NCBI GenBank assembly: GCA_900128585.1
Contig: LT642200.1
Coordinates: forward strand, 1 to 35,186
Origin: Stramenopiles sp. TOSAG23-3
Lineage: Eukaryota; Sar
Direction of reading: 5' to 3'
Length of the DNA stretch: 35,186 nt
Shown piece after piece: positions 5,774 to 32,863 of the stretch; the first letter of the stretch is position 1; each line of letters opens with the position of its first letter. Position numbers and translations under genes: made by a program. The notes beneath the pieces were generated by a model. The model had not been told where the DNA came from. It saw only the letters and a list, made by a program, of their open reading frames with translations, and did not search any database.

Positions 5774-8700
5774 ATGCAAGGAGGGAAATATAACTGGCAA
5801 CACTTGGAGGCCGAGGACCGGGAAAGGCAGGGGTTGCTTGCTGTTTTGGGGGATGAAGCTTGCCAGTGCCCTGGCTGCGGGTTTGTTATAGTAAAAAATG
5901 GAGGTGACCATCAGATGATGTGCGGCTGTGAAGCGAAGCCAGCGGGGGGGACGATGGAGAAGGCATTGCGTGGGGGGGGCTGCGGCCACCAGTTTGATTT
6001 CAGAAACGGGAACCCTCTGGGGGAGGGGAAAATGGGTGAGCCTGTGAACGAGCGCCAGTGGAAGTTTATACCCCGCAACCAAAGGGCTAACCCCGACCGT
6101 TACCTTATAAGAATGGCTGAACAGCGAGATCGGCAGCAGAGAGATATCGCAGAGCAGGCGCGACGGAAAAATGAAGAGGAGCGTGTGAAGAGAGAGCAAG
6201 CGGCAAAGCGGAAAGTGAAAAATGCGGCGGCCGAAAAAATGCTGCATGACAAAACGCCGGTAAATTTTATCCTTCGAGAAGCAGTGGAAGTGATGGCAAA
6301 GGTGGTCAAACACATGGTCACCCCGATGGACTTGCCGCACGAACTCGACCTGCTGCAGCTTCTGCAAGGCGGCGACAAACGAAATCGCTGTTCCAACTGC
6401 CAAGGGAGTGGAAAAGATACCAATCGTGGCGCCAAAGTCGGCGAACGTGGGGGAGAGAAAGAACAAGCGCCAAAAGCAGCGTCGTCCACGCTGCACCTGG
6501 AAAATGAAGAGCTGCTAGCGTCCATCAAGGCCATCTACCACGACGCAGATATGACTAGGAATACAAAAGTACGAAAAGTCATGCTTTTGAAAAATATAGA
6601 TGCCAGACTGAAGCAGAAAATTGTGTCCTCTATTTTGAGTGGAAAAGAGCTCCAGCTGACTTCGTGTCCACAGCAGCTGAATCCCGAGTACGAGAACGGT
6701 GGCGCTTCGAGCGGAGCGAAGCGAAGCGCGGGGGCGAAGTTCGAGGATGACTATGATTTGCTGCACCGGGCGGGATCGCACTCGTCCAGCTTGGCGACAT
6801 GGCTGTATATGAGCAATAAGGGGGAGTTTGAAATTTATGACCCAAAAACAAACAGTGTGCTCGAAGAAGCTTATGCCTCCGGCGGCAGAGGCACGATAGT
6901 CCAGATTCAAGGTCCACATTCCGAATACATAATCGACCTGGCAGAATTGATGCAAATTAATGTAGGTACGGGGGAAAAAGTGTCCATTCTTCGGGTAGCC
7001 GGCGACGAGAACGACAATCACACAAAACATACGGAGAAAAATTCTCGGGACGCACGCATTATGGTCCTGGTTCGGGGCGCATCTCTGGAGCAAGAGTTCG
7101 AGGACTCTTCCGGGGAAGAAGACAACGAGTTTGCGATCGCCGAAAAGGAAGAGCCTGCCACGTGGATATTCGATTTGGGCGGAGGAAACTGGGACCTGTT
7201 TACAAACGATTCGGCGACCCTGTGCGAAAGGAACTGTAGGGAGAACGCGATGTCTCTAGAAATTGACCTTTTCAACCCCAAGGGTCGGTTTAAGATCAGC
7301 TTTGCGGACATGAACATGAAGCGGTTGCCGCAGCACGAGGGACCGCCCATCGCCATTCGAAGGTTGGGGGACCCCATCCCAGAGAAGAAAAAAGTGGAGC
7401 AAAAGCCGAAAGCGAAGGTTGACAAAAACGCCCATGCGAACACAAGAGGGAGGGCACTGAAACGGCGCAGGGAGAAGCTGTTGCAGTCAATGACCCCGAC
7501 CACAGGGGTGAGCGCCACAGTTGTATACCCGACCTTGTCGATGAAAGAAAGGAGGTATGCGTGCCAAGTTTGCCGGGGGACGGGGAAGACGTCCCACTAT
7601 ATGACTCCAAGGGATTGTTCCGCGGTTGCAAGGGCAATGAGCGTCGAGCGGGATGGCAAGTACGATTGTTTGGTATGCTATGGAGATGGGGAATTCTGCC
7701 TTTCCGAGGAATGCGGAAGGCACTATTACTGCGGGGACTGCCTGCGAGGGTCGCTTGAAGCCATCCTGAACACCGGGCAATTCCCGGCGTTTTGCCCTGC
7801 GTGCCGCGCAGAGTCGGGAGCCAACAGTGCCAAACCAGTGAACCACGGAAAAATAGACGAAGCATCGCTGGCATTTCTACAAATGCGAGGGGTCATCAGC
7901 GTCAAGTTGTTCAACCGCTTTCTGAGCGGTGCAATACGAGCGCAGACGGCCGGAGGGGAAGTGATGGCCAACGATGGTGACGGTGACAACGAGGGCGAAG
8001 TTTCCATTGGCATGAATAATGACGATGTCAGGGGAACGTGGAGGCTGATAGCGAAGAGCTGGAATTTGCGAAGTGTGCCACATAGTCGAGCCGGAAGCCA
8101 GGTTGTGCGCGTTCTTAAGAAAGGCTACGAGGTAAAAGTGAAACGGCATATTAAGAAAGACTGGTGCCTTCTCTCGGGGCCTGCGGAAGTGAAGAATCGC
8201 TACATAAAGTTGAGGTCGTCCAGTCACAGGGCCCGTTCATGGGAACACATTAAAAAGGTGAAAACAGGGGCTAAAAAGCTGCGAGACGGTAAAGGCAAAG
8301 GAGGCAATGAAGCCTGCGACAGCAAGCGGTCGTTTGAATGCCCAGGGAAGTGTGGCGCTTTTCTGTTATCAAACCACAAAAGTTATGTGGAAAAACGAAT
8401 GGGGGAGTTTTATGAACAAGGGGACAAAATTGGCCTAAGGCTGGGGGAGTGCCCACAATGCAACGCCCTCATTTGCAAGCGTTGCACAGCATGTGTGCCG
8501 AGCAACGATGTCTGCCACGTCTGCCCAAAAGCAAAGTTGCAAAAGAACGACAAAGCAACAGAACAGTGGATGCGAAAGATTTGTAAGAAGTGCCCCGGGT
8601 GTGGTCAGTATGTACAAAAAACTGAAGGGTGTGACATTATGATGTGCGGCACAAATGCCCATGGGAAGGTCAGAGATGCATTAAGAAACGGTGGGTGCGC

Positions 8701-8830
8701 CCTCATATTTAGCTGGAAGAACCTGAAAGAATGTAATGATGGTCACGGGTACACTGGGATGGATGGCAAATGGCACAAAGGGAAAGGTCCAGTTACAGAC
8801 CGGCAGGTTTTGCTCCGTGGGAAAAAATAA
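5774..8830 (+). CDS. RBR-type E3 ubiquitin ligase with tandem WWE domains and a duplicated RING2
   Basis: A 1018-residue protein. Domains in order: a RING2-like zinc module (about 30-77); a coiled, charged region (110-155); a CxxCxGxGK knuckle (C206, C209); WWE 1 (about 340-410, WLYMSNKGEFEIYDP to NVGTGEKVSILR); a diverged WWE 2 (about 462-532); a second CxxCxGxGK knuckle (C597, C600); RING1 (C632 to C677); an SH3b-like segment (754-815, SWNLRSVPHSRAG); IBR (about 855-917); and C-terminal RING2 (938-981). RBR ligases pass ubiquitin through a RING2 cysteine. Here C953 in KTEGCDIMMCG fits that position. In the N-terminal copy the matching residue is Asp45 (NGGDHQMMCG), so that copy should be inactive. 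WWE domains commonly bind ADP-ribose units, so recognition of poly-ADP-ribosylated targets is plausible. The start follows an in-frame stop at 5765. The substrate is unknown. Confidence 0.82.
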   Translation: MQGGKYNWQHLEAEDRERQGLLAVLGDEACQCPGCGFVIVKNGGDHQMMCGCEAKPAGGTMEKALRGGGCGHQFDFRNGNPLGEGKMGEPVNERQWKFIPRNQRANPDRYLIRMAEQRDRQQRDIAEQARRKNEEERVKREQAAKRKVKNAAAEKMLHDKTPVNFILREAVEVMAKVVKHMVTPMDLPHELDLLQLLQGGDKRNRCSNCQGSGKDTNRGAKVGERGGEKEQAPKAASSTLHLENEELLASIKAIYHDADMTRNTKVRKVMLLKNIDARLKQKIVSSILSGKELQLTSCPQQLNPEYENGGASSGAKRSAGAKFEDDYDLLHRAGSHSSSLATWLYMSNKGEFEIYDPKTNSVLEEAYASGGRGTIVQIQGPHSEYIIDLAELMQINVGTGEKVSILRVAGDENDNHTKHTEKNSRDARIMVLVRGASLEQEFEDSSGEEDNEFAIAEKEEPATWIFDLGGGNWDLFTNDSATLCERNCRENAMSLEIDLFNPKGRFKISFADMNMKRLPQHEGPPIAIRRLGDPIPEKKKVEQKPKAKVDKNAHANTRGRALKRRREKLLQSMTPTTGVSATVVYPTLSMKERRYACQVCRGTGKTSHYMTPRDCSAVARAMSVERDGKYDCLVCYGDGEFCLSEECGRHYYCGDCLRGSLEAILNTGQFPAFCPACRAESGANSAKPVNHGKIDEASLAFLQMRGVISVKLFNRFLSGAIRAQTAGGEVMANDGDGDNEGEVSIGMNNDDVRGTWRLIAKSWNLRSVPHSRAGSQVVRVLKKGYEVKVKRHIKKDWCLLSGPAEVKNRYIKLRSSSHRARSWEHIKKVKTGAKKLRDGKGKGGNEACDSKRSFECPGKCGAFLLSNHKSYVEKRMGEFYEQGDKIGLRLGECPQCNALICKRCTACVPSNDVCHVCPKAKLQKNDKATEQWMRKICKKCPGCGQYVQKTEGCDIMMCGTNAHGKVRDALRNGGCALIFSWKNLKECNDGHGYTGMDGKWHKGKGPVTDRQVLLRGKK

Positions 8831-10467: not shown

Positions 10468-12855
10468 TTACTCGTCGCTTTGCTTTGTTACAAAGCGGCA
10501 CAAGCAAATGGCAAAGGCGGTAAATGCCGGAACCGGGTACTGAAAATCGACGTTGAAGCGATCCGCGTCCCTGCCCATCTGGACGAGGACGTTGGACACG
10601 TCGTCCGTGTCGATTGTCCCCAGCGGGGACTGGTCGTACTTGGCTTTTAGGTACCGGTCTTGAGGCGGGCTCACCACCAGCTGAAAATTCTTGACAGACG
10701 TTTCGTTCGCTCGTCCCATGAAATCAATCAAATTCGAGGTGCGGCCAGAAGACCATGTACGGTTGTGCATGCACATCATCCGCTCCCGGCACATAATGTT
10801 CTGGGCGCCTTTGATAATGATTCGTTTGAACCAGCTGCGCATGGTGTCCTCGTTCGTGATGGGCCTCCACTCCACTGTATGCTCCGTACCGTCGGCCGTT
10901 GCAATGATAGAGGGTATGCATACCTCCATCCGCCTGTCCGCCTCCGTCTGCTTCGACCGTTGGAAAAGCATAACGCCCATTTCCTTCCGGACAACGCTCT
11001 CACGGCTCATGTTTTTTCCAAAAAATTCTTTGTGGGAAGCGTTCAGCACGTCGACGGGGTTCAGCCCACGGTCGTACAGCGTGTACTCCGTCTCGCCGTG
11101 GGACGACTGCAGTTTCCCCAGGTACCCAGAGCCACGCTTAGAGTGCGACTTGTTCAGGTCCTTTTCGTCCAGAGAGATCAGCACGTTGGTCTTCGCGGTC
11201 ATGGACTTTTTCTGGGCAACCATCAGCAGCCGCGGGGGGGTTTCGGGCCCCTGCTCCAGGTACAGCCGGTAAACCGGGTTCAGCTTTTTCTTGATCCCAG
11301 ACCGGTCCCGCTCGATGTAGCACCGGACAAACCTGTCTTCCCCGCCAGTGGGCGGGTTCAACAACCACTGGATCAGCTCGTCGCGCCCCTGCGGAACGTT
11401 CGCCGGGTTGTAGTACCGCATGATGCTGTCCCCAACGCTCGAATCGTCCTCGCTGATCAACGATTTCGGCGACCCGGCCGCGTCCCAATCCTCCGCGTTC
11501 GACTTGGACGATGACGTGTCCCTTGGGTGGACCCCCTCCCCTTCGTACTCCAAATCATCCGCCTCGCCGTCGACGTTCGCCTTGGCCTCCCGTTCCTGCT
11601 GGCGCCTCCGCCTCCGCTCCTCCTCTTCGGCCTCCTCCATGGCTTCTTCCATCTCTCGCTGCCTCCGGCGCTCTGCCTTTCGGCGCTCAAACTCGGCCTC
11701 TTCCTTGTCCAGCTCCATCTGGCGCTCCCGCCGTCTCCGCCCCGCGGCGTCCTCCCCGTCGTCCTTCAGCTTTTCGCCTTCCATGTCGGCAACTTCCCCA
11801 TAAAAATCTGACTCGAACTTGTCCCTGTCGTCCCCGCTACCAACATCATCGCGGTCATCGCGCCGCCCATCGCCGTCCCGGCCCGCCCCTAGCTTTTTGG
11901 TGGTCGGCCCGGCCCGCATAATGTTGGAGGGGACTTTGTTCCTGCCGCCGCCGCCCCGCTCCCTATCGTCGTCGTCGTCACTGTCCCCGCCGCCGAGCAC
12001 GTCACCGTGGGTGTCGGTCTTCCGGCCCTTCCCGCGCCGGATGGAGCGGTTCTTTGGCTGCTCGTACCGGCCCCCGTCCCCGGCGCCCCGCCTCGTGGAG
12101 CGCCCTTTGGCGCTGGCGGACGTGCTGCCGCCCTTGGGGGTCTGCACTTCCCACTCGTGCGAGAACACGTCCTTCACCCGGTCCCCGACCCCGAAGAGCG
12201 GGTGCGCGTCCCCGTCGTCGTCCGAGTTGGAGTTGTCCCCCTCTCGTGTATCTTTATTCACGACCTCCTTGCGAATCTGTTTATAAATATCGCCGCCCCC
12301 CTCTCCGCTCGCACCCATGTCTCCCCCGATCTCGATCGCGGCCTGGCGGGCGAAGCGGGACACTGCCGGCTTCCCTTTGGGCGGGGGGACCTTGCGCCCC
12401 CCCGCCGCGCTGTTTTTGGCCATTTTCGCCCGAAACATGGCTCGGGCGTTCAGATTCGCCGACTTCGGCGGGGGGCTCGACGGGGGCGCCATGCCCGATT
12501 GGAGCTGTTTCCTCACCATGCTGACCGCCCCACTCGGCCTCGCCCCACGCGGGGGGGCGCCCCGGGGGGGAGGCACGCCTTTCTTCGGCGGCGGCACCCT
12601 CTCCGAGACTTTCCCTTCGGCCACTTTCCCTTCATCTCTGTGGGAAACTTTCCCTTCGTCTTCCTCGTCGTCCCGTCGCCGGTTCATGGACGGCAAAATG
12701 TGTTCCCTGCTGTCCTCGTCGTCGGAGTCCGACCCATGGTTCCATTCCCTGCTCCTCGAGGAGACCACTTTCTTTCCAAGTTTCGTAAAGGCCGTCTGCC
12801 GGCGAGTGTCCAAATAGTCGTCCTCGTCCAGCTCCTCGCCGTACTTGCGAGACAT
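10468..12855 (-). CDS. Tubby-domain protein with long disordered N-terminus
   Basis: A 795-residue protein from the ATG at 12855; the frame is open slightly further upstream but only with a non-ATG codon. The C-terminal third (about 505-795) is a tubby domain: VRCYIERDRSGIKKKLNP, then KTNVLISLDEKDL, YLGKLQSS, EYTLYDRGLNP, SVKNFQLV, VQMGRDADRFNVDFQYP and the terminal AFTAFAICLCRFV. Tubby domains form a beta-barrel round a central helix and bind phosphoinositides at the membrane; several deliver receptors to cilia. Lysines at the presumed lipid-binding loop (AQKKSMTAKT) are kept. The N-terminal two thirds are disordered: a proline-rich PPRGAPPRG region, acidic patches, and a charged coiled-coil run rich in Glu and Arg. 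No F-box is seen, unlike plant TULPs. It diverges from CAF1. Confidence 0.9.
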   Translation of the reverse strand: MSRKYGEELDEDDYLDTRRQTAFTKLGKKVVSSRSREWNHGSDSDDEDSREHILPSMNRRRDDEEDEGKVSHRDEGKVAEGKVSERVPPPKKGVPPPRGAPPRGARPSGAVSMVRKQLQSGMAPPSSPPPKSANLNARAMFRAKMAKNSAAGGRKVPPPKGKPAVSRFARQAAIEIGGDMGASGEGGGDIYKQIRKEVVNKDTREGDNSNSDDDGDAHPLFGVGDRVKDVFSHEWEVQTPKGGSTSASAKGRSTRRGAGDGGRYEQPKNRSIRRGKGRKTDTHGDVLGGGDSDDDDDRERGGGGRNKVPSNIMRAGPTTKKLGAGRDGDGRRDDRDDVGSGDDRDKFESDFYGEVADMEGEKLKDDGEDAAGRRRRERQMELDKEEAEFERRKAERRRQREMEEAMEEAEEEERRRRRQQEREAKANVDGEADDLEYEGEGVHPRDTSSSKSNAEDWDAAGSPKSLISEDDSSVGDSIMRYYNPANVPQGRDELIQWLLNPPTGGEDRFVRCYIERDRSGIKKKLNPVYRLYLEQGPETPPRLLMVAQKKSMTAKTNVLISLDEKDLNKSHSKRGSGYLGKLQSSHGETEYTLYDRGLNPVDVLNASHKEFFGKNMSRESVVRKEMGVMLFQRSKQTEADRRMEVCIPSIIATADGTEHTVEWRPITNEDTMRSWFKRIIIKGAQNIMCRERMMCMHNRTWSSGRTSNLIDFMGRANETSVKNFQLVVSPPQDRYLKAKYDQSPLGTIDTDDVSNVLVQMGRDADRFNVDFQYPVPAFTAFAICLCRFVTKQSDE

Positions 12856-13351
12856 TGCAGTTTGAGTAGGAAAGGGGGGAGAGGGGGGAGAGAGAGACAC
12901 ACGTACGCAAACTAACCAACGTAGTAGAAATCACACACAAACACTCTTTGACTCAATTCACACTTGTATATGTCTTATTTTGTTTTCTTAAATCCTTCGC
13001 ACACATTCTATTGTTTACTTTTTTCCGTTGGTACAAAGTGAAATGTGTTGCTCTCTGTTGTGTGATGATGATGAATGACTAAATTATTATAATTTTTTTT
13101 TTTTTTTTTTAAATATAATAAATAATACTACAGTGTTGGTTGTGTCTAGTAGTTAGTATATAACTACAAATTAGATACACACAGTACATGAATACAAAGA
13201 AAGAAAGAAAGCAAAAAAAATCCAATGGAATAGTAAGTAGAAAGTCAATAAAAAAAGGAAAAATGAAATTAAAAAAAAAATCATATGTAATTATAGTTTT
13301 AGAGATAGAGAGTGTAAAAAGTACATTTCAACATTTTAATTTATTAAGTAG

Positions 13352-22739: not shown

Positions 22740-23155
22740 TTGAAATCACATCATCATCATCTGAACAAAATATTAGTATTGTAGTAGAGCAATAGAATGT
22801 ATGAAATCTTGTGGAGAAGGAAGGGAAAGAGTGTGTGCAACATAAAGAAACGAGGGAGAGGCCTGCATGAACATTACGATTGAGGAGGTGTATATTATCA
22901 ACCCCTTCTGTTCCATAAATACCAGGTGAGTGGCCGTTTGTTGTCTTTGTTCCAACGGACTATTGTGTGTCGCTCCGTCGCAGTGACAACGGATCTAGGA
23001 CCTTTCAGCACGCCTGTTGTACCTGGAACCCCGATTGTCCGCAGCCGCTGGCCCGATAATCCCCCGATTTCTTTGTGTTCGCCCAGGAAAGATACATATA
23101 TCAATAGGTTTGGCCCAAGCAGTCGTAGGGGAACCACTTGTCGTTCGGTGCTGCC

Positions 23156-26100
23156 ATGGTCAAGAAACGCCGCCTTGACGCGTCGCACTTGCCCGCCAAG
23201 AAGCGGGCAGTCTTAGGCCCAAATGCCACCTCCATCACGCCGACGTACGTTGAATCGTCCGGCGCGTCCAGCTCGCGTCCGTCGGGGGAGGCCCTTATCG
23301 CCCACCGCGTTAGTGTCCTGTGGGACGACGATGGGAAGTGGTACAGTGGCATCATCACGGACTACCGGGTGAAGCAGGGCATTGGAAAGCACCAAATCGT
23401 GTACGACGTAGCCGATGGTGGACAAATTATGAGAACTATTAGCCAAGCGCAAGGCCTGTTGGGGGCGGGCGTGACCACGCACGAGTGGCTTATTTTTGAG
23501 GCTGGTAGGGGAAAGAAGATTGGAAATGTAGTTAAGTGGAAGTTAATAGAAGAGGACGACGAGCTATCGGTGGGGTCGTCGAAACCTTCCGCCCGAGGAG
23601 CGAGGAAGCCCATGGTAGCCAAGCCCAAGGGGCCGGGCTCGTACGCGCGGAACGTAGGGAGGGGGAGGGGCGCGGGCGGGGACGACGCGCACAAGCGCCG
23701 GGGCGGGCCCGTTCGCCCCTCGAGCAAGCGCTACTCCCCCACCAGCGAGTTCGACGATTCCACCTTTAGTTCCGGGATGGGCGAATTCGGTGCGTTGGAC
23801 GAGATGGGGAACGAGAACGATTTCGTCAACATGATCGATGACATCGACGACCCAGGCGAATCGGACGCCAGGCCAGGCCGGGGAGGCAGCAGCGCGTTAG
23901 ATACGTCTGATGGGCAGTGGGGCAACCTGTTCCTCCCCTTTGACATTGGCGAGGATGACGAAGCAGAGGACGACCTCCAGGACTCCGGGTTTGGGACAAA
24001 TTTTTCACAGATTTTTGGAGCAGACAATGACTACAACGACGGGGGCGGTGGGAGTGATAACAGCGACTACGATAGCGGCGGCGAAGATTTTGACTCGTTG
24101 GCAGCGAGCGCGGCCAACAACGGCACCAAGCAATTGGGCTGGCAGGGCGACGATACTTCGAACAGCGACAGGAAGAAAGGGAGGGGCAAGCGCCCTGCCG
24201 GTGGGCCCATTAGTGGGTCTGCAGGCGGCCAATACAGCAGCTCGTCCCACGGGGCTGGCGCTGGGGCCGAAACGTCGCCGTCGACTGCTGCGGACGATGG
24301 GGGCGAGGAGCCCATCAAGCAGAAAGTGGCCGCCGTGAAAGAGCCGGAATATTTCACTCTGCAGGGTTCGGAAATGACCAAGTCGTGGATGCGCGAAAGT
24401 GGGTTCGAGAAGCCAATAGTAGTAAAGGATGTGAAAGATATGGGGATGACCATTCCGGACCCTAAGATGGATATTTTTGCGTTTTGCAATGCCATCGGGG
24501 ACGAGACCATGACTGGGTTGCGGGTGAAGGCCCAGTCCGAAATAGACGTGAAAATGTCCGATTGGGCCAAGCATTTCAGCGTGACGGGGCGGCCCAAAGA
24601 CGACCCATCCGAATTGAGGCTTCCCACATTGGCCATAAATGGGACTGAGCTTCATAAACAGATTAGTGTACCAAGTTTTGTGGAAACTTTGGACTGGTCC
24701 AAGTACGTGCTGCGCGTCGGAAACGACGATGTCCACGACGACTGCCGGCTCGTCCTAGAGCTGGGGCGGTCAACGGGACTTAACAAAAACTGGGACTCGA
24801 GGAGACACTTCATAGGGAAAAATGAAAAGCCTTCGGCAGAGGATGTTGAGGCCGCGCCCGTCCTCGCCACGCCAGTGGGGAGCGCTTCGCTCGACAGCGC
24901 TGCCCCAGTGAAACCTGCTCCGGCCGATGTGGTGGCGACCGGGGTGCCGGCCGTCGAGGAAATAAAGAAGGTGGAAGTGAAGGTTGAGAGCCCCGGCGAA
25001 GATGTGATCATGAAAGATGTGGAAGGGTCGAAGGGGGGCGCCGCTGTTGTTGATGCGGAACCGGCTGGTGTAACGGCCCTCGAAAAGACTGCCTTGGGGG
25101 CAGGGGACGCAAAGGCATTGAAGGCTGTCGCAACCGCAAAAGCAGCTGCACCGTCCGGCAGAAAAGGCGCTGCGGCACAGGCCGCTGTTGGGCCGGGGGC
25201 GGTGGGGACGGTGACCACATCCGTGGCCGGGGCGGTTACGACCACCAAGACGGTAGTAGAGGATTCTGACGGTACAATAAGAACTGACGTGAAGAGAACT
25301 TCCGAGCCGACCATGCTGTGCAAAATGCGCACGGAGGGGACGTACTCGGATTTTCACATCGACGAGGCCGGGTCCGCCACCTGGTATTATGCGCACCAAG
25401 GAGAAACTTGGGTGTACTTCATCCCACCCTCTGTTACGAATTTGGAAAAGTACGAAAAATGGTACATGTCGGACAATCAGACGGAAATATTTTTTGGGGA
25501 TCTTGTTTCGGACTGCTTTAAATTGAAAGTTGTACGTGGAAATTTGCTGGTGATTCCTGCCGGGTGGATCCATGCCATGTACGCCCGCTCGAACTCCGTT
25601 CTGCTCGGGTCTAGCTTCTCGAACACCCTCTGTTTGACCACGCAAATTCGAGTGCATAAGATTGAGCGCTCCTGCCATTTGACCCCAGCAAGTTTGAAGA
25701 ATGTCTTTTGGCACGTGTGCCTGCACTTTTACAAAGCCATGCTAGAGTGCTCGGTGAAAAAGCGCCAGTTCAGGAGACGCCGGGGACAAATTGAGAGAGA
25801 AGGGACCAAGTTGAGCAAAACCCGTGAAAACCGGCAGAAGTCTAGGGCCGAGAACCAAGTGAAACTAAAACGCATTCGCATATTAGCAGAGCAAAAGATA
25901 AAGGCGTTGAAAGCCATGGGGGGCATGCCTAACCTAAACCCCGTGTTGCCACCCTCCTCTACAGCAAAGGCCAAGTCAAAAGGCAAAGGGGGAAAAAAGA
26001 AAAAGGACGACGACAAAAAAGACGGGAAAAAGAAAGATGCGGGTAATGCTGCCATTCCGGCGGAATCGGCTTCGGGCGAAGCAAAAACTGGAGATGCTGA

Positions 26101-27940
26101 GCCCAAAGAAGCGGCAGAGAAGAAGAAGCCAGTCCAATTAACACCGTTGCAGCTTGCCAAAAAGGAGTGCGACGATGCCATCATGCAGCGAGATTACTTG
26201 GAACGTGAGATACAAGAAGCGGAGGAAGCTCATCGTGCCGCAGTTGGTAGGGAAAAAGATTTGCGGATGCGGCAGAAGATCGAAATGACCGAAATGACGG
26301 AAGGGCAACTGTCGATCGCGGAATTACGAGAACTCATGAGGCTCATGATACATTTGCGAAAGATGGCTGGGCCAGAGAATGCCTGGAAAAGTATTTCCCC
26401 CCCCGGAGACTCGGGAGGGGCGAAGGACGGGGAAGACATGGCGGCGCAGAATGCGTCTAAGCTAAAAAGCGACATCCGACGCGCGAACGAGGCTCGGGCA
26501 GCTGGTCTTCTGGCAGGATCCGATGGTATGGACGGTGTCCGGGTTGGGGAAGGGGATACTAGCTTTATTAAGTACCACCACCGTCCCATGCCGAAGGTTA
26601 TTAGGTTCGATGTTGAAAGCGACAAGATCCCTGATGTTATTGTGAACGCCCTGCAACTGCTCGATGATCTTGATAGGTTGTTCTGGTTTCAGCGTGCGCA
26701 TGCTTGCGCAAAAAAGGGTGTCCCGGCGTACGTTGAAGATTTTGCAGAACTGGACGAAGACGACCAGGCGGCCAAAGTGTACGAGCCGAAGAATCCTAAA
26801 TACAAGTTTCTGTGGGACGAGAATGGCAGGCCACCAGGGATTGGCAAACGCGGGGTCGACATGAAAGGCCTGTGTAAATGCCATTTAAAGAAGTGCCTCG
26901 TATGTCGTAACTGCGAAAAACGACACTGCTGGTGCCCTGGCGGTCCATTAGACCCCCACGCACCTCCTGTGCCGAAGAAGAAGCCGAAACCAAAGAAGAA
27001 GCCGCCGCCAGTCGTGAAGCCCCCCCCGGCACCGAAACCGCCTCGAAAGGGTCCCGTCGTCCAAAAACAGCCCAAGCCGAAATTGACGAAAGAACAAGAG
27101 CAGGCCCTTGTGCGCATGAAGTGGAGGAGACGCCTTGCGCTGGACACCGTCCAGGGCACGGCAGCCGCAAAGGAAGCGGAGGAGATGACGAAATGGCGGG
27201 TCAAGAATGCCAAAGTAAATGCGGCCACCTCCGGTGTAAAAGCTATGAAGGCTATGAGAGCCCAGAATGCGTTGGGTGCGGAGAAGGCGAAGGGAAAGAA
27301 AACTGGGTCGAAGGAAGCCTCCGGCGCCGACCATATTGTGCCGATAGATGCTTCTGGGCAACGATTAATATCACACCGAGCCTCATGCCATCGCTGCGGA
27401 AATCTGCGGAAGAAGACCATGAAGTGCAGCCGTTGCCCTCACGTATTTTGTCAAAAGTGTGGAGAAAAGATGCAAGAAGAACATGGCGTAATTACCTTCA
27501 AAGAAGGATGCCCAGTATGCAAGGAACTGTGCTGTTGTGGTGTCAACCGAAGCGCCGACTGTATCCGAAAATTTCATTGTTACAAAAAGTGCCCAGCCAT
27601 GAAAAAACTTGGCAAGAGAGGTGCAAAGCTTGTGGCGCAAGCAGCAGCTCTTGCAGGGACGAATGAAGTTTCGGGGAGTGGCGCCTCCGGTGGAGTGGCG
27701 AATGAATCGTCTACCACTGCCAAAACTACGAGTGCGAATGTGACCACGACTGCGAGCAGCAGTGGGGAAAAGCCCGCTGTTGAGAAGGTTAAACCTGCTC
27801 CTGCAGTTAGCGCGACGGCTGTGGCTGGGAACGCCACCAGTGGCAAGGCTGGATCAAGTGCGGCGCTAGCGGCTGGGAGCGTTGCCAGTACAGAGGCGAA
27901 CAAAGCGTCTCTTACTGCAAATCACGACGCGGTTGTGTAA
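23156..27940 (+). CDS. KDM2/KDM7-type JmjC protein with Tudor-like and 4CXXC_R1-type zinc finger domains
   Basis: A 1594-residue protein from the ATG at 23156; six codons upstream are open but start with TTG. Order: a Tudor/agenet-like barrel (about 48-110, LWDDDGKWYSGIITDY); an acidic disordered region; a JmjC fold (about 400-865); a coiled, Lys-rich stretch; a Cys cluster (about 1238-1264, CKCHLKKCLVCRNCEKRHC); a Pro/Lys-rich linker; a zinc finger (about 1410-1480, CHRCGNLRKKTMKCSRCP to CPVCKELCCC) like the 4CXXC_R1 finger of CDCA7 and plant JMJ24-type proteins; and a low-complexity tail. The JmjC core resembles KDM2/KDM7, with KPIVVKDVKDMGMTIPDP, DFHIDEAGSATWYYAHQGE and VIPAGWIHAMYA. The iron ligands His734, Asp736 and His806 are kept. 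The position of the KDM2A 2-oxoglutarate lysine is Thr751. A roughly 185-residue Ala/Val-rich insert splits the fold. It likely acts on chromatin; demethylase activity is uncertain. Confidence 0.85.
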   Translation: MVKKRRLDASHLPAKKRAVLGPNATSITPTYVESSGASSSRPSGEALIAHRVSVLWDDDGKWYSGIITDYRVKQGIGKHQIVYDVADGGQIMRTISQAQGLLGAGVTTHEWLIFEAGRGKKIGNVVKWKLIEEDDELSVGSSKPSARGARKPMVAKPKGPGSYARNVGRGRGAGGDDAHKRRGGPVRPSSKRYSPTSEFDDSTFSSGMGEFGALDEMGNENDFVNMIDDIDDPGESDARPGRGGSSALDTSDGQWGNLFLPFDIGEDDEAEDDLQDSGFGTNFSQIFGADNDYNDGGGGSDNSDYDSGGEDFDSLAASAANNGTKQLGWQGDDTSNSDRKKGRGKRPAGGPISGSAGGQYSSSSHGAGAGAETSPSTAADDGGEEPIKQKVAAVKEPEYFTLQGSEMTKSWMRESGFEKPIVVKDVKDMGMTIPDPKMDIFAFCNAIGDETMTGLRVKAQSEIDVKMSDWAKHFSVTGRPKDDPSELRLPTLAINGTELHKQISVPSFVETLDWSKYVLRVGNDDVHDDCRLVLELGRSTGLNKNWDSRRHFIGKNEKPSAEDVEAAPVLATPVGSASLDSAAPVKPAPADVVATGVPAVEEIKKVEVKVESPGEDVIMKDVEGSKGGAAVVDAEPAGVTALEKTALGAGDAKALKAVATAKAAAPSGRKGAAAQAAVGPGAVGTVTTSVAGAVTTTKTVVEDSDGTIRTDVKRTSEPTMLCKMRTEGTYSDFHIDEAGSATWYYAHQGETWVYFIPPSVTNLEKYEKWYMSDNQTEIFFGDLVSDCFKLKVVRGNLLVIPAGWIHAMYARSNSVLLGSSFSNTLCLTTQIRVHKIERSCHLTPASLKNVFWHVCLHFYKAMLECSVKKRQFRRRRGQIEREGTKLSKTRENRQKSRAENQVKLKRIRILAEQKIKALKAMGGMPNLNPVLPPSSTAKAKSKGKGGKKKKDDDKKDGKKKDAGNAAIPAESASGEAKTGDAEPKEAAEKKKPVQLTPLQLAKKECDDAIMQRDYLEREIQEAEEAHRAAVGREKDLRMRQKIEMTEMTEGQLSIAELRELMRLMIHLRKMAGPENAWKSISPPGDSGGAKDGEDMAAQNASKLKSDIRRANEARAAGLLAGSDGMDGVRVGEGDTSFIKYHHRPMPKVIRFDVESDKIPDVIVNALQLLDDLDRLFWFQRAHACAKKGVPAYVEDFAELDEDDQAAKVYEPKNPKYKFLWDENGRPPGIGKRGVDMKGLCKCHLKKCLVCRNCEKRHCWCPGGPLDPHAPPVPKKKPKPKKKPPPVVKPPPAPKPPRKGPVVQKQPKPKLTKEQEQALVRMKWRRRLALDTVQGTAAAKEAEEMTKWRVKNAKVNAATSGVKAMKAMRAQNALGAEKAKGKKTGSKEASGADHIVPIDASGQRLISHRASCHRCGNLRKKTMKCSRCPHVFCQKCGEKMQEEHGVITFKEGCPVCKELCCCGVNRSADCIRKFHCYKKCPAMKKLGKRGAKLVAQAAALAGTNEVSGSGASGGVANESSTTAKTTSANVTTTASSSGEKPAVEKVKPAPAVSATAVAGNATSGKAGSSAALAAGSVASTEANKASLTANHDAVV

Positions 27941-29431: not shown

Positions 29432-29446
29432 TAGGACGGAGGAAAA

Positions 29447-29601
29447 GGAAGAAGGAAGAAGGAAGAAGGAAGAAGGAAGAAGGAAGAAGGAAGAAGGAAG
29501 AAGGAAGAAGGAAGAAGGAAGAAAGAAGGAAGAAGGAAGAAGGAAGAAGGAAGAAGGAAGAAGAAAGAAGGAAGAAGAAAGAAGGAAGAAGAAAGAAGGA
29601 A
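29447..29601. repeat. GGAAGAA minisatellite
   Basis: About 20 imperfect 7-base units, with some variants shortened or extended by an A. It produces a false Ser/Phe/Leu-rich ORF on the minus strand. Confidence 0.92.
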
Positions 29602-29701
29602 GCAATAATTTGTTTGTTGTGTAACTATGGAACTTTTGTGTAATGAATATCACGCAGGTATTGTACGTATAATTGAATTATTCTATCGAAGAAAACTGAG
29701 A

Positions 29702-32700
29702 CTACTCAAAGAACTTGCCGGTACCACCTCGAGCAAACGGATTAGGACTTTGAGGTCCTCCCTTGGTGACGCCATTTGAAAGTTTTACACTAAGAGCTAA
29801 ATTTTCAGACGCCTGCTTCTGCAAAAACCCAGATACCATTTCTTCATCCTCGTCGCTACTGTATTGGAATGTGTCGTACATTGCGGCACCACCACTGCTC
29901 GCCTTTGGGGATGCCAATACAGCGTCCTTCATCGCTTCTTTCAATGCTTCACTTCCGTGGCGTTGCAGCGACATGGCGCGATCTCCACCGTGGTTATCGT
30001 TCCCATCGCTTCTTTGATAAGATCCCTTCTTTTTTGCCTGGGTTATAAAATCATACCCCAGTAAAGTGTCTGTTCCTGGGCGCCGCCCTTCATCGAAATC
30101 AAAGCACGCGTCCAAAAATTCAACCAAGGCATCCGACGATTGGTCGGGGTACTCGTTGCGAGGTGGTTCCATCGCGTTCGCTATGTGAAACATAAGGGTC
30201 ATTGCTGTATCGATTCCAAGAGAAGACCACGGCGGGTTGCCGGTAAACATATTCAAAACAGTCCCACCAACGCTCCAAATATCTGCCTTGCGCCCCTGTT
30301 TTTCTTGCTTGATCATTTCTGGGGCCATAAAATAAGGGGTCCCTCGATATTCCAATTCTTCCTTCCTAGAAATACTTTGCCCAGTCGTCAGCTGCCTTGC
30401 TGCACCAAAGTCAGCGAGTTTGACAGTGCCAATGTCGTCGATGAGGACATTTCCGGGCTTTATGTCTAAATGAATGACATCATTATTATGCAAGTATTGC
30501 AAGCCCAGTAGAATCTGGTGTGTATACGTCCGCGCGATCGTCTCTGTTAATCGACCGAATTTCTTCAAAATATCCACTAATGACCCTGCTGGAACCCACT
30601 CTGTAAATATAAACAGTTCGCGCGTTTTATCGTCCCATTGAGCGCCCAAATATCTTACAATATGTTCATGAGACAACGTCTTCATTACATTTATCTCATC
30701 TTGTAAATCTTGGAGTTCTTGCGGGTCGGAATTGGTGGCAACCTGCTTCACAGCCATCATTTCCCCCGTCTCGAGATTCAGCCCCATGTACACCCGGCCA
30801 TAAGCACCCTGGCCAATAATCTCCCCCCGTCTCCATTCTCCCAGTTCGCTGGGTGCACGTTTCCGGGCATTTCGGCGCCGGTCAGACTTCGAGTCAACAG
30901 GAACTGCACCTGTGCTTTTCGTGTCTTCTTTCGGTTTTGTTTCTTTCTTCGAATCATCCTTCTTCTTCACCACAACGTAATTCGCTGGAAAATACCCTTC
31001 GCCCCGCACGGAATTGCCCCACCACCAGTCGCCACTTTGCGACGTATCCGCCACCATCACCAAATCTCCCACGGCTAAAGACAACTCCGTTTCTATGTTG
31101 CTGTCATAAGTTTTGATCACTTGAACATAAAAAGGGACGGGAGGCGCCTCGGGTGGTGGCGCAGCGTTCGGATTTTCTTGCTGCTGCAGCAGCTGAGCCT
31201 TTGGGGGCGACGGGTAATAGTCCGCCTGGTTCTCCTCCAGCGGTCCTAAACTACACTTGGTTCTTAATTTTCCGATTACCCGCAGCACCTTCGCAGTATG
31301 TATCTTCTTTACCCCTAGCTCTAGCAAATCCTCCTTTCCTAGATCCAACAACGTTTCGCCGTCCACTTCCTTTAAATTGTCCCGTTTAACGGTCGCACGA
31401 ACAACTTTTAAATCCGCAGTGAAAGCAAACCACTTCATCACTTCTTGCGCACTCCACTGTTGCGCTTTCCGCTCATCTAAACTACACGCACCCTTCCACT
31501 CGTCGTAACTGAACCCAAAAAATATATTGTAATGTGACCCTACTGCTTGCCGTAGGTCGCATAGGCGGTTGTTTGCAGGCTGCGCGTTTGATCCACCGTA
31601 CTCGTGGACAATTGTCCACAATTTGTACCAATCGATGAGATCTATTCCGCCGTTTGTGTTTTGGTCAAAAAATTCAAGGGCTTCCCTCAATTCACGATCG
31701 CTCCAATTGAACCCGTGGTCGTAGACAAGTCGGCCAAACTCTTCTTTCGTAATTGTCCCCGTCCGAGAGTGGTCGTAGTCGTCGAAGGCCTGCTGGATCC
31801 CTTTGTCCGCTGCAACAGGCACTAGCTTTCGCAGTTGTCCGCCCGTCATATCTTTTGCAGGCTCCTTAAAGCTCAAAAGCTGTTCTTCTGTCGTTTTCCT
31901 GCTCAACGTTGACCTTTGGAACGGGACGTTTCTTTTTCCGCGGGTGCTGTTTCCACCCCGTGTGACTTTGTGGTCCCTCAGCGAAGCAGCTTGGGCCATC
32001 GCGAGCGCGCGAGCTTCGCGGTCATTTAAACGCTTCCGGATGGTTGCCTCCTTTTCACTTTCTCGAATGGCCTTGGCAAAATCGTCTTCGCTGCCATGCT
32101 GGCCACCATTGCTGACAGCGTTGTACGAACCGTCGCTGTACGCATGGGTCGTAGTAGAAGACAGGGATGCCGCAGATGAATTATCGTAACTATTGTGGTG
32201 GGACGGCGACGGGCTTCCCAATTTTGCACTCTGGCAATGCTCGCAGATGGTTGTCATCGGGGCATTCATCCATGTACAAGTGGAGCATGCCCAGTTTGCC
32301 CTGGAGGGTGACGCGCTGTAAGATGGGTCGTCGTATTTTTGGGCCACATGCTGCTCCGTTTCCACTGCCAAATTTTTCTCGTGCATCATTTTCTGGAACA
32401 ACATAAAATCTTCAAAGGTAAAAAGTTTGCGCAACAACGTTTTTAAAGCAGCGTCTCGGGGGCCCATATCGTTCTGGCTCAACTTGATTTCGCAAGCATA
32501 GATAAACTCTTCCGGCGTGCTCCCTATTTCTCTTAATACTCCTTCCAGCATTCCTTCCACCAATTCACGAAATTCACGAAAAACTTCCCACTGGCCGTGA
32601 TCGTGCTCGCCCTCGATGTCCGAGAAAATAGCACAGTGGGAATCTATAAATGTTGTTATCATCGCTTTCCAGTCCGGCCCTTTCAAGTAATTTTCGATGG

Positions 32701-32863
32701 ACTCTACCACGACGTCTGGTCCTAAATCCGACATTCTTGTTACAGTTCCCCCGGGTGAAGACACCTCCGTCACCCTCTCTTTTCTGCACATCACGCACGA
32801 GAGGTCAACGTTTTTGTTGTAATATGTACAATTTGGGCAGGCCCACTCGTCGGAGGACGCCAT
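29702..32863 (-). CDS. Multidomain MAPKKK: NZF-BART-NZF-UIM-EF hand-SAM-SH3-kinase
   Basis: A 1053-residue protein, ATG at 32863. Domains in order: NZF/RanBP2 zinc finger (5-30, WACPNCTYYN); a BART-like domain (about 51-170) close to that of CFAP36 (ENYLKGPDWKAMITTFIDS, LVEGMLEGVLREIGSTPEEF, FTFEDFMLFQKMM); a second NZF (190-215, WACSTCTWMN); a UIM-like helix (about 259-275, DDFAKAIRESEKEA); two EF-hands (loops at 364-375 and 400-411); SAM (about 467-535); SH3 (about 577-634, GDWWWG, GYFPANYV); and a STE11-type kinase (about 677-940). The kinase has GQGAYG, Lys706, the catalytic loop HLDIKPGN with Asp800, DFG at 818-820 and GTPYFMAPE. All core catalytic residues are present, but the Arg of HRD is Leu. 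It probably heads a MAP kinase cascade, with ubiquitin, calcium and small-GTPase inputs inferred from the domains. The tail is acidic. Confidence 0.88.
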   Translation of the reverse strand: MASSDEWACPNCTYYNKNVDLSCVMCRKERVTEVSSPGGTVTRMSDLGPDVVVESIENYLKGPDWKAMITTFIDSHCAIFSDIEGEHDHGQWEVFREFRELVEGMLEGVLREIGSTPEEFIYACEIKLSQNDMGPRDAALKTLLRKLFTFEDFMLFQKMMHEKNLAVETEQHVAQKYDDPSYSASPSRANWACSTCTWMNAPMTTICEHCQSAKLGSPSPSHHNSYDNSSAASLSSTTTHAYSDGSYNAVSNGGQHGSEDDFAKAIRESEKEATIRKRLNDREARALAMAQAASLRDHKVTRGGNSTRGKRNVPFQRSTLSRKTTEEQLLSFKEPAKDMTGGQLRKLVPVAADKGIQQAFDDYDHSRTGTITKEEFGRLVYDHGFNWSDRELREALEFFDQNTNGGIDLIDWYKLWTIVHEYGGSNAQPANNRLCDLRQAVGSHYNIFFGFSYDEWKGACSLDERKAQQWSAQEVMKWFAFTADLKVVRATVKRDNLKEVDGETLLDLGKEDLLELGVKKIHTAKVLRVIGKLRTKCSLGPLEENQADYYPSPPKAQLLQQQENPNAAPPPEAPPVPFYVQVIKTYDSNIETELSLAVGDLVMVADTSQSGDWWWGNSVRGEGYFPANYVVVKKKDDSKKETKPKEDTKSTGAVPVDSKSDRRRNARKRAPSELGEWRRGEIIGQGAYGRVYMGLNLETGEMMAVKQVATNSDPQELQDLQDEINVMKTLSHEHIVRYLGAQWDDKTRELFIFTEWVPAGSLVDILKKFGRLTETIARTYTHQILLGLQYLHNNDVIHLDIKPGNVLIDDIGTVKLADFGAARQLTTGQSISRKEELEYRGTPYFMAPEMIKQEKQGRKADIWSVGGTVLNMFTGNPPWSSLGIDTAMTLMFHIANAMEPPRNEYPDQSSDALVEFLDACFDFDEGRRPGTDTLLGYDFITQAKKKGSYQRSDGNDNHGGDRAMSLQRHGSEALKEAMKDAVLASPKASSGGAAMYDTFQYSSDEDEEMVSGFLQKQASENLALSVKLSNGVTKGGPQSPNPFARGGTGKFFE

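What the first reader, a model, noticed from the sequence alone, without database searches (positions are those of the whole stretch)
29702..32863. One-chain MAPKKK that could read ubiquitin, calcium and an ARL-type GTPase
NZF fingers, a BART-like domain, a UIM-like helix, EF-hands, SAM, SH3 and a STE11-type kinase lie in one intronless ORF. In animals the TAK1 MAPKKK gets its ubiquitin input from a separate NZF protein (TAB2/TAB3); here both parts appear fused. The BART-like domain resembles CFAP36, a ciliary protein that binds ARL3-type GTPases, suggesting a link to cilia or flagella. I know of no described kinase with this domain order.
Basis: partly seen in the sequence, partly recalled or inferred. 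Interest (0 to 1): 0.78.

Follow-up and report, generated by a model that had tools for sequence, protein, structure and literature searches.

The report
Ubiquitin-calcium MAPKKK with ciliary-type BART domain
One uninterrupted gene from an unidentified, likely flagellated microbe joins two zinc fingers of a type that often binds ubiquitin, a domain related to the ciliary protein CFAP36, EF-hands, SAM and SH3 domains and a MEKK-type kinase, in an order shared by three other unnamed database proteins, so one protein would likely sense ubiquitin and calcium and start a MAP-kinase cascade without separate ubiquitin-reading subunits.

Summary
The ORF at 29702-32863 (-), 1053 aa, reads NZF1, BART, NZF2, UIM-like helix, EF-hand pair, SAM, SH3, MEKK-type kinase, C-terminal NPF motif. 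Three unnamed proteins (46-57% identical over the N-terminal 640 residues) have the same order end to end, so this is one conserved protein, not a chance ORF or a joining error. Zinc cysteines, the Thr/aromatic/Met ubiquitin-type residues of NZF1, one calcium loop and the catalytic residues are kept in 4 of 4. (2) Only EF1 has a complete loop. (3) Animal MAP3K1 already has a predicted UIM beside its kinase. The UIM here rests on a motif alone. New: the kinase is non-RD (HLD, 4 of 4); a paralogue has only EF-SAM-kinase, so the ubiquitin, BART and SH3 modules look like additions to a core (loss in the paralogue is also possible); the genome encodes a MEK1-like MAP2K and flagellar genes. Function is untested.

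The parts
29702..32863 (-). Uninterrupted ORF, 1053 aa: NZF1-BART-NZF2-UIM-EF-SAM-SH3-kinase-NPF
   Evidence: same architecture in P0002-P0004
32771..32854 (-). NZF1 (RanBP2-type zinc finger), residues 4-31
   Evidence: Pfam 26.7 bits against cut-off 27; PDB: Nup153, TRABID, HOIP, NPL4; W, 4 Cys, Thr13 and Met25 kept in 4 of 4, residue 14 Tyr or Phe
32360..32716 (-). BART domain, residues 50-168, CFAP36-like
   Evidence: Pfam E 1.2e-24; CFAP36 E 4e-18 against ARL2BP E 0.008
32591..32617 (-). Family-invariant loop IEGEHDHGQ, residues 83-91, at the place of part of the GTPase-switch contact of CFAP36
32216..32299 (-). NZF2, residues 189-216
   Evidence: PDB: Nup153, Nup358, NPL4, TAB2, TAB3, HOIP; W and 4 Cys in 4 of 4
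32039..32095 (-). UIM-like helix, residues 257-275
   Evidence: motif in 4 of 4 at the same place; helix 260-295 in a low-confidence model; no Pfam UIM hit
31616..31804 (-). EF-hand pair, residues 354-416
31739..31774 (-). EF1 loop, residues 364-375: positions 1, 5, 6, 12 = D, T, G, E in 4 of 4
31631..31666 (-). EF2 loop, residues 400-411: position 12 = D/H/Q/Q, degenerate
31244..31471 (-). SAM domain, residues 465-540
30971..31129 (-). SH3 domain, residues 579-631
   Evidence: Pfam SH3_2 33.3 bits, cut-off 21.8
30029..30838 (-). MEKK/STE11-type kinase domain, residues 676-945
   Evidence: best solved relative MAP3K2 214 bits, next STK25 171
30449..30472 (-). Catalytic loop HLDIKPGN (non-RD), residues 798-805
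   Evidence: HLD in 4 of 4; HRD in paralogue L036
29726..29743 (-). C-terminal NPFARG motif, residues 1041-1046
   Evidence: 4 of 4; also NPFARG in the paralogue relative P0122 and NPF in P0121

Best explanation
It is a conserved one-chain MEKK-type kinase, a predicted MAPKKK, that is likely switched on by being gathered at ubiquitin-marked sites through its zinc fingers and BART domain, with calcium as a second predicted input, and would then phosphorylate a MAP2K. Shown: the domain order, its conservation in four sequences, intact catalytic residues, a non-RD catalytic loop, intact zinc ligands, one complete EF loop, and a MEK1-like MAP2K and flagellar genes in the same genome. Inferred: NZF1, NZF2 and the UIM-like helix together bind ubiquitin chains with useful avidity; the SAM domain would self-associate or bind another SAM protein and bring kinase domains together; because the catalytic loop lacks the HRD arginine, clustering and release from the regulatory half, rather than phosphate on the activation loop, would set activity; the BART groove would hold an amphipathic helix, perhaps of an Arf-family GTPase other than ARL2/ARL3, and so place the kinase, possibly at the flagellum base; EF1 would change the EF-SAM arrangement when calcium binds.
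For: Architecture and E-values; conservation in four sequences with 75% invariant kinase, 54-56% EF and SAM, 48% BART, 44-46% NZF columns against 0%, 3%, 25% and 31% in four linkers; NZF1 Thr13/(Tyr or Phe)14/Met25 in 4 of 4 (that these places contact ubiquitin in NPL4-type fingers is recalled); NZF2 matches NPL4 and TAB2/3; a UIM-type motif at the same place in 4 of 4, the strict pattern being matched in 10-48 of 10,000 shuffles per linker (pattern written after seeing the sequence); SAM; MAP3K2 as nearest solved kinase by 43 bits; HLD fixed in 4 of 4, against HRD in the 8 own-genome kinase loci that printed the motif, of 10 scanned; MAP2K L040 best matches MEK1 at 214 bits; 12 dynein-heavy-chain matches and IFT57.
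Against: No binding, calcium or kinase data exist. No Pfam UIM match in 5 of 5 members; the looser UIM core alone appears in 267-1321 of 10,000 shuffles, and the UIM segment is only 16% invariant. NZF folds also bind Ran or RNA (recalled), and Nup153 is the top PDB match of both fingers by E-value. NZF2 has Lys in place of the contact Thr in P0002. EF2 is degenerate. The full-length model was unusable (mean pLDDT 36), so domain arrangement and autoinhibition are guesses. Flagellar genes in the genome do not place this protein in the flagellum.
Confidence: 0.5

Rival explanations
1. It is an ARL3/ARL2 effector kinase of the flagellum: BART binds GTP-loaded ARL3 through its LLxILxxL helix, as CFAP36 does, and the kinase acts in ciliary trafficking.
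For: BART is closest to CFAP36; the groove for the Arl3 helix is mostly identical or hydrophobic, with V102, F120, C124, L144 and L147 invariant, and the switch-contact Phe106 and Glu45 are kept as F153 and E86; the genome has flagellar genes.
Against: Leu48 and Thr51 of CFAP36, which contact the Arl3 switch region (PMC4635315, passages), are His and Trp/Tyr/Tyr/His in the kinase family, but Leu/Ile and Thr/Ser in ARL2BP and in the three other BART domains of this genome; those three do vary at other contact places (Glu44 in two, Phe106 to Tyr in two). No ARL2/3-type N-terminus in the 20 of 24 Arf-Pfam matches examined (the only string found, LLTLL in L025, is in a Pfam match of 48.8 bits), and no PDE6D/UNC119 match, a search whose 14 controls also stayed silent. 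The assembly looks partial.
Confidence: 0.2
2. NZF and UIM modules serve degradation or sorting of the kinase or its substrates (ubiquitin-directed endosomal or autophagy adaptor) rather than activation; the NPF motif would link it to EH-domain endocytic proteins.
For: Several ubiquitin-type modules plus NPFARG in 4 of 4; paralogue relatives P0121 and P0122 keep NPF. EH binding of NPF is recalled.
Against: No endocytic domain in the Pfam list; NPF motifs are short.
Confidence: 0.2
3. The zinc fingers are not ubiquitin readers but bind Ran, RNA or protein, and the kinase is simply a Ca/SAM-regulated MEKK.
For: Nup153 is the top PDB match for both fingers by E-value; UIM has no Pfam support.
Against: NZF1 keeps Thr, Tyr/Phe and Met at the ubiquitin-contact places in 4 of 4 and aligns without gaps with TRABID NZF over residues 6-30.
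Confidence: 0.12
4. Gene fusion artefact: two neighbouring genes joined by assembly error.
For: The window comes from a fragmented assembly (660 contigs); in the paralogue locus L036 the frame breaks at a G-run where P0121 reads on, so frame differences do occur between these sequences.
Against: Three full-length homologues of 1040, 1076 and 1081 aa with the same order.
Confidence: 0.01

Closest known systems
MAP3K2/MAP3K3 (MEKK2/3)
   Same: MAP3K2 is the nearest solved kinase domain, 214 bits
   Different: MEKK2/3 have a PB1 domain and no NZF, BART, EF-hand, SAM or SH3 (recalled); HRD catalytic loop (alignment) against HLD here
MAP3K1 (MEKK1)
   Same: MAPKKK with in-chain ubiquitin modules: E3 PHD/RING and a predicted UIM just upstream of the kinase (PMC13072407, passages)
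   Different: SWIM-RING-TOG architecture; no NZF, BART, EF-hand, SAM or SH3 (recalled); HRD loop in P0005, which I take for a MAP3K1 relative
TAK1 with TAB2/TAB3
   Same: NZF-directed MAPKKK; NZF2 here matches TAB2/TAB3 NZF
   Different: There the NZF is on a separate subunit (recalled)
CFAP36 (CCDC104/BARTL1)
   Same: BART domain, E 4e-18, helix groove mostly kept
   Different: No kinase (recalled); two switch-contact positions differ in the whole kinase family
Ste11/Ste50 and ZAK (MAP3K20)
   Same: SAM domains in MAPKKK signalling; Ste50 and MAP3K20 are among the PDB matches of the SAM profile
   Different: No NZF, BART or EF-hand (recalled)
Own-genome paralogue L036 (538 of first 540 residues identical in database protein P0121; P0122 is a 57% relative)
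   Same: EF-hand pair, SAM region, MEKK-type kinase; the EF-SAM region of P0121 is 31% identical on its own (94.7 bits, E 1e-23), kinase E 9e-78; NPF near the C-terminus of P0121 and P0122
   Different: No NZF, BART, UIM or SH3 seen; HRDIKPAN; the complete EF loop is the second, not the first. The L036 ORF breaks at a G-run before the NPF tail, which lies in another frame
Phytophthora infestans PITG_08008
   Same: Kinase with N-terminal EF-hands (PMC3019232, passages)
   Different: PH domain between EF-hands and kinase; not called a MAPKKK in the passages seen

Membership tests
STE11/MEKK-type MAPKKK | Kinase domain nearest to MEKKs | tested here: met
   MAP3K2 214 bits against STK25 171; no tree was built
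STE11/MEKK-type MAPKKK | Intact catalytic residues (Lys, Glu, Asp, DFG, APE) | tested here: met
   K706, E723, D800, N805, D818-G820, A847-E849 invariant in 4 of 4
STE11/MEKK-type MAPKKK | RD catalytic loop, usual in MEKKs but not shared by all MAP3Ks (NIK and COT are non-RD, recalled), so not defining | tested here: not met
   HLD in 4 of 4
STE11/MEKK-type MAPKKK | Phosphorylates a MAP2K | not testable with these tools
   A MEK1-like MAP2K is encoded; no assay
NZF ubiquitin-binding zinc finger | W-x-C-x2-C...C-x2-C zinc site | tested here: met
   Both fingers, 4 of 4
NZF ubiquitin-binding zinc finger | Thr-Phe/Tyr and hydrophobic contact residues (recalled) | tested here: met
   NZF1 4 of 4; NZF2 only in part (Thr/Lys/Thr/Thr, Trp/Tyr/Tyr/Tyr, His/Tyr/Tyr/Tyr)
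NZF ubiquitin-binding zinc finger | Binds ubiquitin | not testable with these tools
   No assay
CFAP36/BART ARL effector | BART fold | tested here: met
   Pfam E 1.2e-24; CFAP36 E 4e-18, by sequence; no confident model
CFAP36/BART ARL effector | Hydrophobic groove for LLxILxxL helix | tested here: met
   Of 10 positions, 8 are hydrophobic or Cys, Lys58 is Arg/Lys, Ala88 is Ser/Gln
CFAP36/BART ARL effector | Switch-contact residues Glu44, Glu45, Leu48, Thr51, Phe106 | tested here: not met
   Gly, Glu, His, Trp/Tyr/Tyr/His, Phe: 2 of 5 kept in the family
UIM | Acidic patch, hydrophobic-x-x-Ala-x-x-x-Ser-x-x-acidic | tested here: met
   4 of 4; the pattern is recalled
UIM | Match to the Pfam UIM profile | tested here: inconclusive
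   No UIM hit in 5 of 5 members at E 10; HMMER filters may drop so short a motif
SAM | Five-helix SAM fold | tested here: met
EF-hand | Complete 12-residue loop | tested here: met
   EF1 4 of 4; EF2 fails at position 12

The most novel reading that the evidence does not exclude
A ubiquitin-gated, activation-loop-independent MAPKKK that carries its own CFAP36-type ciliary anchor: ubiquitin chains at the flagellum base, read together with calcium through a BART domain retuned to a new Arf-family partner, switch on a MAP-kinase cascade from one polypeptide.
Probability: 0.2. Interest if true: 0.82.

Novelty: new variant of a known kind. Interest (0 to 1): 0.56.

Why it matters
If the inputs are real, one chain does what animal TAK1 signalling does with a MAPKKK plus a separate ubiquitin-reading subunit, which would make the logic of ubiquitin-to-MAPK signalling testable in a single recombinant protein. 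No BART-bearing kinase outside this family showed among the listed matches, so it would extend BART domains to protein kinases and show how a plain EF-SAM-MAPKKK core can acquire ubiquitin and localisation modules in microbial eukaryotes. The paralogue gives a natural control.

Full report

CONSERVATION. Of 7,995 scored candidates from 5.8 billion proteins, 4 matched residues 1-640 at E <= 0.001: the window's own copy P0001 (starting at an in-frame GTG, so without NZF1) and P0002 (57% identical), P0003 (47%) and P0004 (46%), each covering 98%. The last three carry no name; their sources are ena, ena and jgi/lgn, probably metagenomes. Their lengths are 1040, 1076 and 1081 aa and the alignment runs end to end. 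A profile search gave 151 matches, 120 listed; below these four the best covers only 26% of the query, the kinase. More diverged members may have been missed, since the method needs shared 5-residue words. Invariant columns in the four sequences: kinase 75%, SAM region 56%, EF 54%, BART 48%, NZF2 46%, NZF1 44%, SH3 38%, tail 25%, UIM segment 16%, against 0%, 3%, 25% and 31% in four linkers. Eight of eight zinc cysteines are kept in 4 of 4.

UBIQUITIN PART. NZF1 has Thr13, Tyr/Phe14 and Met25 in 4 of 4; NZF2 is looser, with Lys for Thr in one homologue. That these places contact ubiquitin in NPL4-type fingers is recalled. Nup153, not a ubiquitin reader in my knowledge, is the top PDB match of both fingers by E-value. 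A UIM-type string (EDDFAKAIRESEKE in the window) lies at the same place in 4 of 4; the strict pattern, written after seeing the sequence, occurs in 10 to 48 of 10,000 shuffles of each linker, the bare core in 267 to 1321. Against it, no Pfam UIM match in five members, and the aligned letters are diverged.

BART PART. The domain is much nearer CFAP36 (E 4e-18) than ARL2BP (E 0.008). The Arl3-CFAP36 structure paper (PMC4635315, passages) names a groove that buries Arl3's LLxILxxL helix and a second contact with the switch regions. Mapped by alignment, the groove is largely kept. In the second contact Glu45 and Phe106 are kept, Glu44 is Gly, and Leu48 and Thr51 become His and Trp/Tyr/Tyr/His; most of this lies in or beside a loop IEGEHDHGQ that is identical in 4 of 4. 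ARL2BP and three other BART domains of this genome (L010-L012) keep Leu/Ile and Thr/Ser at 48 and 51, though those three vary at Glu44 (two of three) and Phe106 (Tyr in two of three). So this BART is under strong constraint for something, but probably not for a standard ARL2/ARL3 switch. Of 24 Arf-Pfam matches, the 20 held as loci show no ARL2/3-type N-terminus; one LLTLL string stands in L025, a 48.8-bit match. No PDE6D/UNC119 relative was found, but that search rang in no control. The genome is 12.9 Mb in 660 contigs and an exact 16-base 18S pattern is not in it, so absence proves little. It has 12 dynein-heavy-chain matches and IFT57 (E 3e-107), so the organism very likely builds flagella.

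KINASE AND PARALOGUE. The nearest solved kinase is MAP3K2 (214 bits; next STK25, 171). Catalytic Lys, Glu, Asp and DFG are invariant, but HRD is HLD in 4 of 4; of 10 own-genome kinase loci scanned, 8 printed the motif, all HRD. The closest paralogue, L036 (45% identical in the kinase), is EF-SAM-kinase with HRDIKPAN. It is 538 of 540 residues identical to the database protein P0121, whose EF-SAM region is homologous to this protein on its own (E 1e-23). P0121 and its 57% relative P0122 bear NPF near their C-terminus; in the L036 locus the frame breaks at a G-run before that tail, which continues in another frame. The EF loops degenerate in opposite ways: EF1 complete here, EF2 complete there (ligand positions recalled). 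The simplest reading is an EF-SAM-MAPKKK-NPF core to which this family added NZF-BART-NZF-UIM and SH3; loss in the paralogue is the alternative. A MEK1-like MAP2K is present (L040).

MECHANISM. Recruitment by ubiquitin chains and BART, clustering through SAM, tuning by calcium, output through a MAP2K. Every binding step is inferred. A non-RD kinase is usually less dependent on activation-loop phosphate (recalled), which fits control by recruitment.

KNOWN OR NEW. MAP3K1 already joins an E3 domain and a predicted UIM to a MAPKKK (PMC13072407, passages), so ubiquitin-in-chain is not new; NZF-in-chain with BART, EF, SAM and SH3 did not show in the listings. I file it as a new variant of MEKK-type MAPKKKs.

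Noticed in passing
32591-32617: IEGEHDHGQ loop, identical in all four family members and not in the other five BART sequences aligned; Glu-His-Asp-His could be a metal site.
   Followed up: partly
29726-29743: Invariant C-terminal NPFARG, also in the paralogue relative P0122; NPF is an EH-domain ligand (recalled).
   Followed up: partly
L036 712-2367 and 2300-2959: Paralogue EF-SAM-MAPKKK with N-terminal MGAGAS (possible myristoylation); its frame breaks at a G-run where database protein P0121 reads on.
   Followed up: partly
29440-29602: AGGAAGA tandem repeat, about 24 copies, just downstream of the gene.
   Followed up: no
10468-12900: Tubby-family protein (Tub E 1.9e-48) on the same contig; Tubby-like proteins act in ciliary trafficking (recalled).
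   Followed up: no
5774-8830: 1018-aa ORF with a WWE domain and no other Pfam match at E 0.001.
   Followed up: no
23138-27940: 1600-codon ORF without a Pfam match at E 0.001.
   Followed up: no
P0003 303-310 and P0004 299-306: A second UIM-like core (LEIAMRES, MELAMRES) that the window protein lacks.
   Followed up: partly
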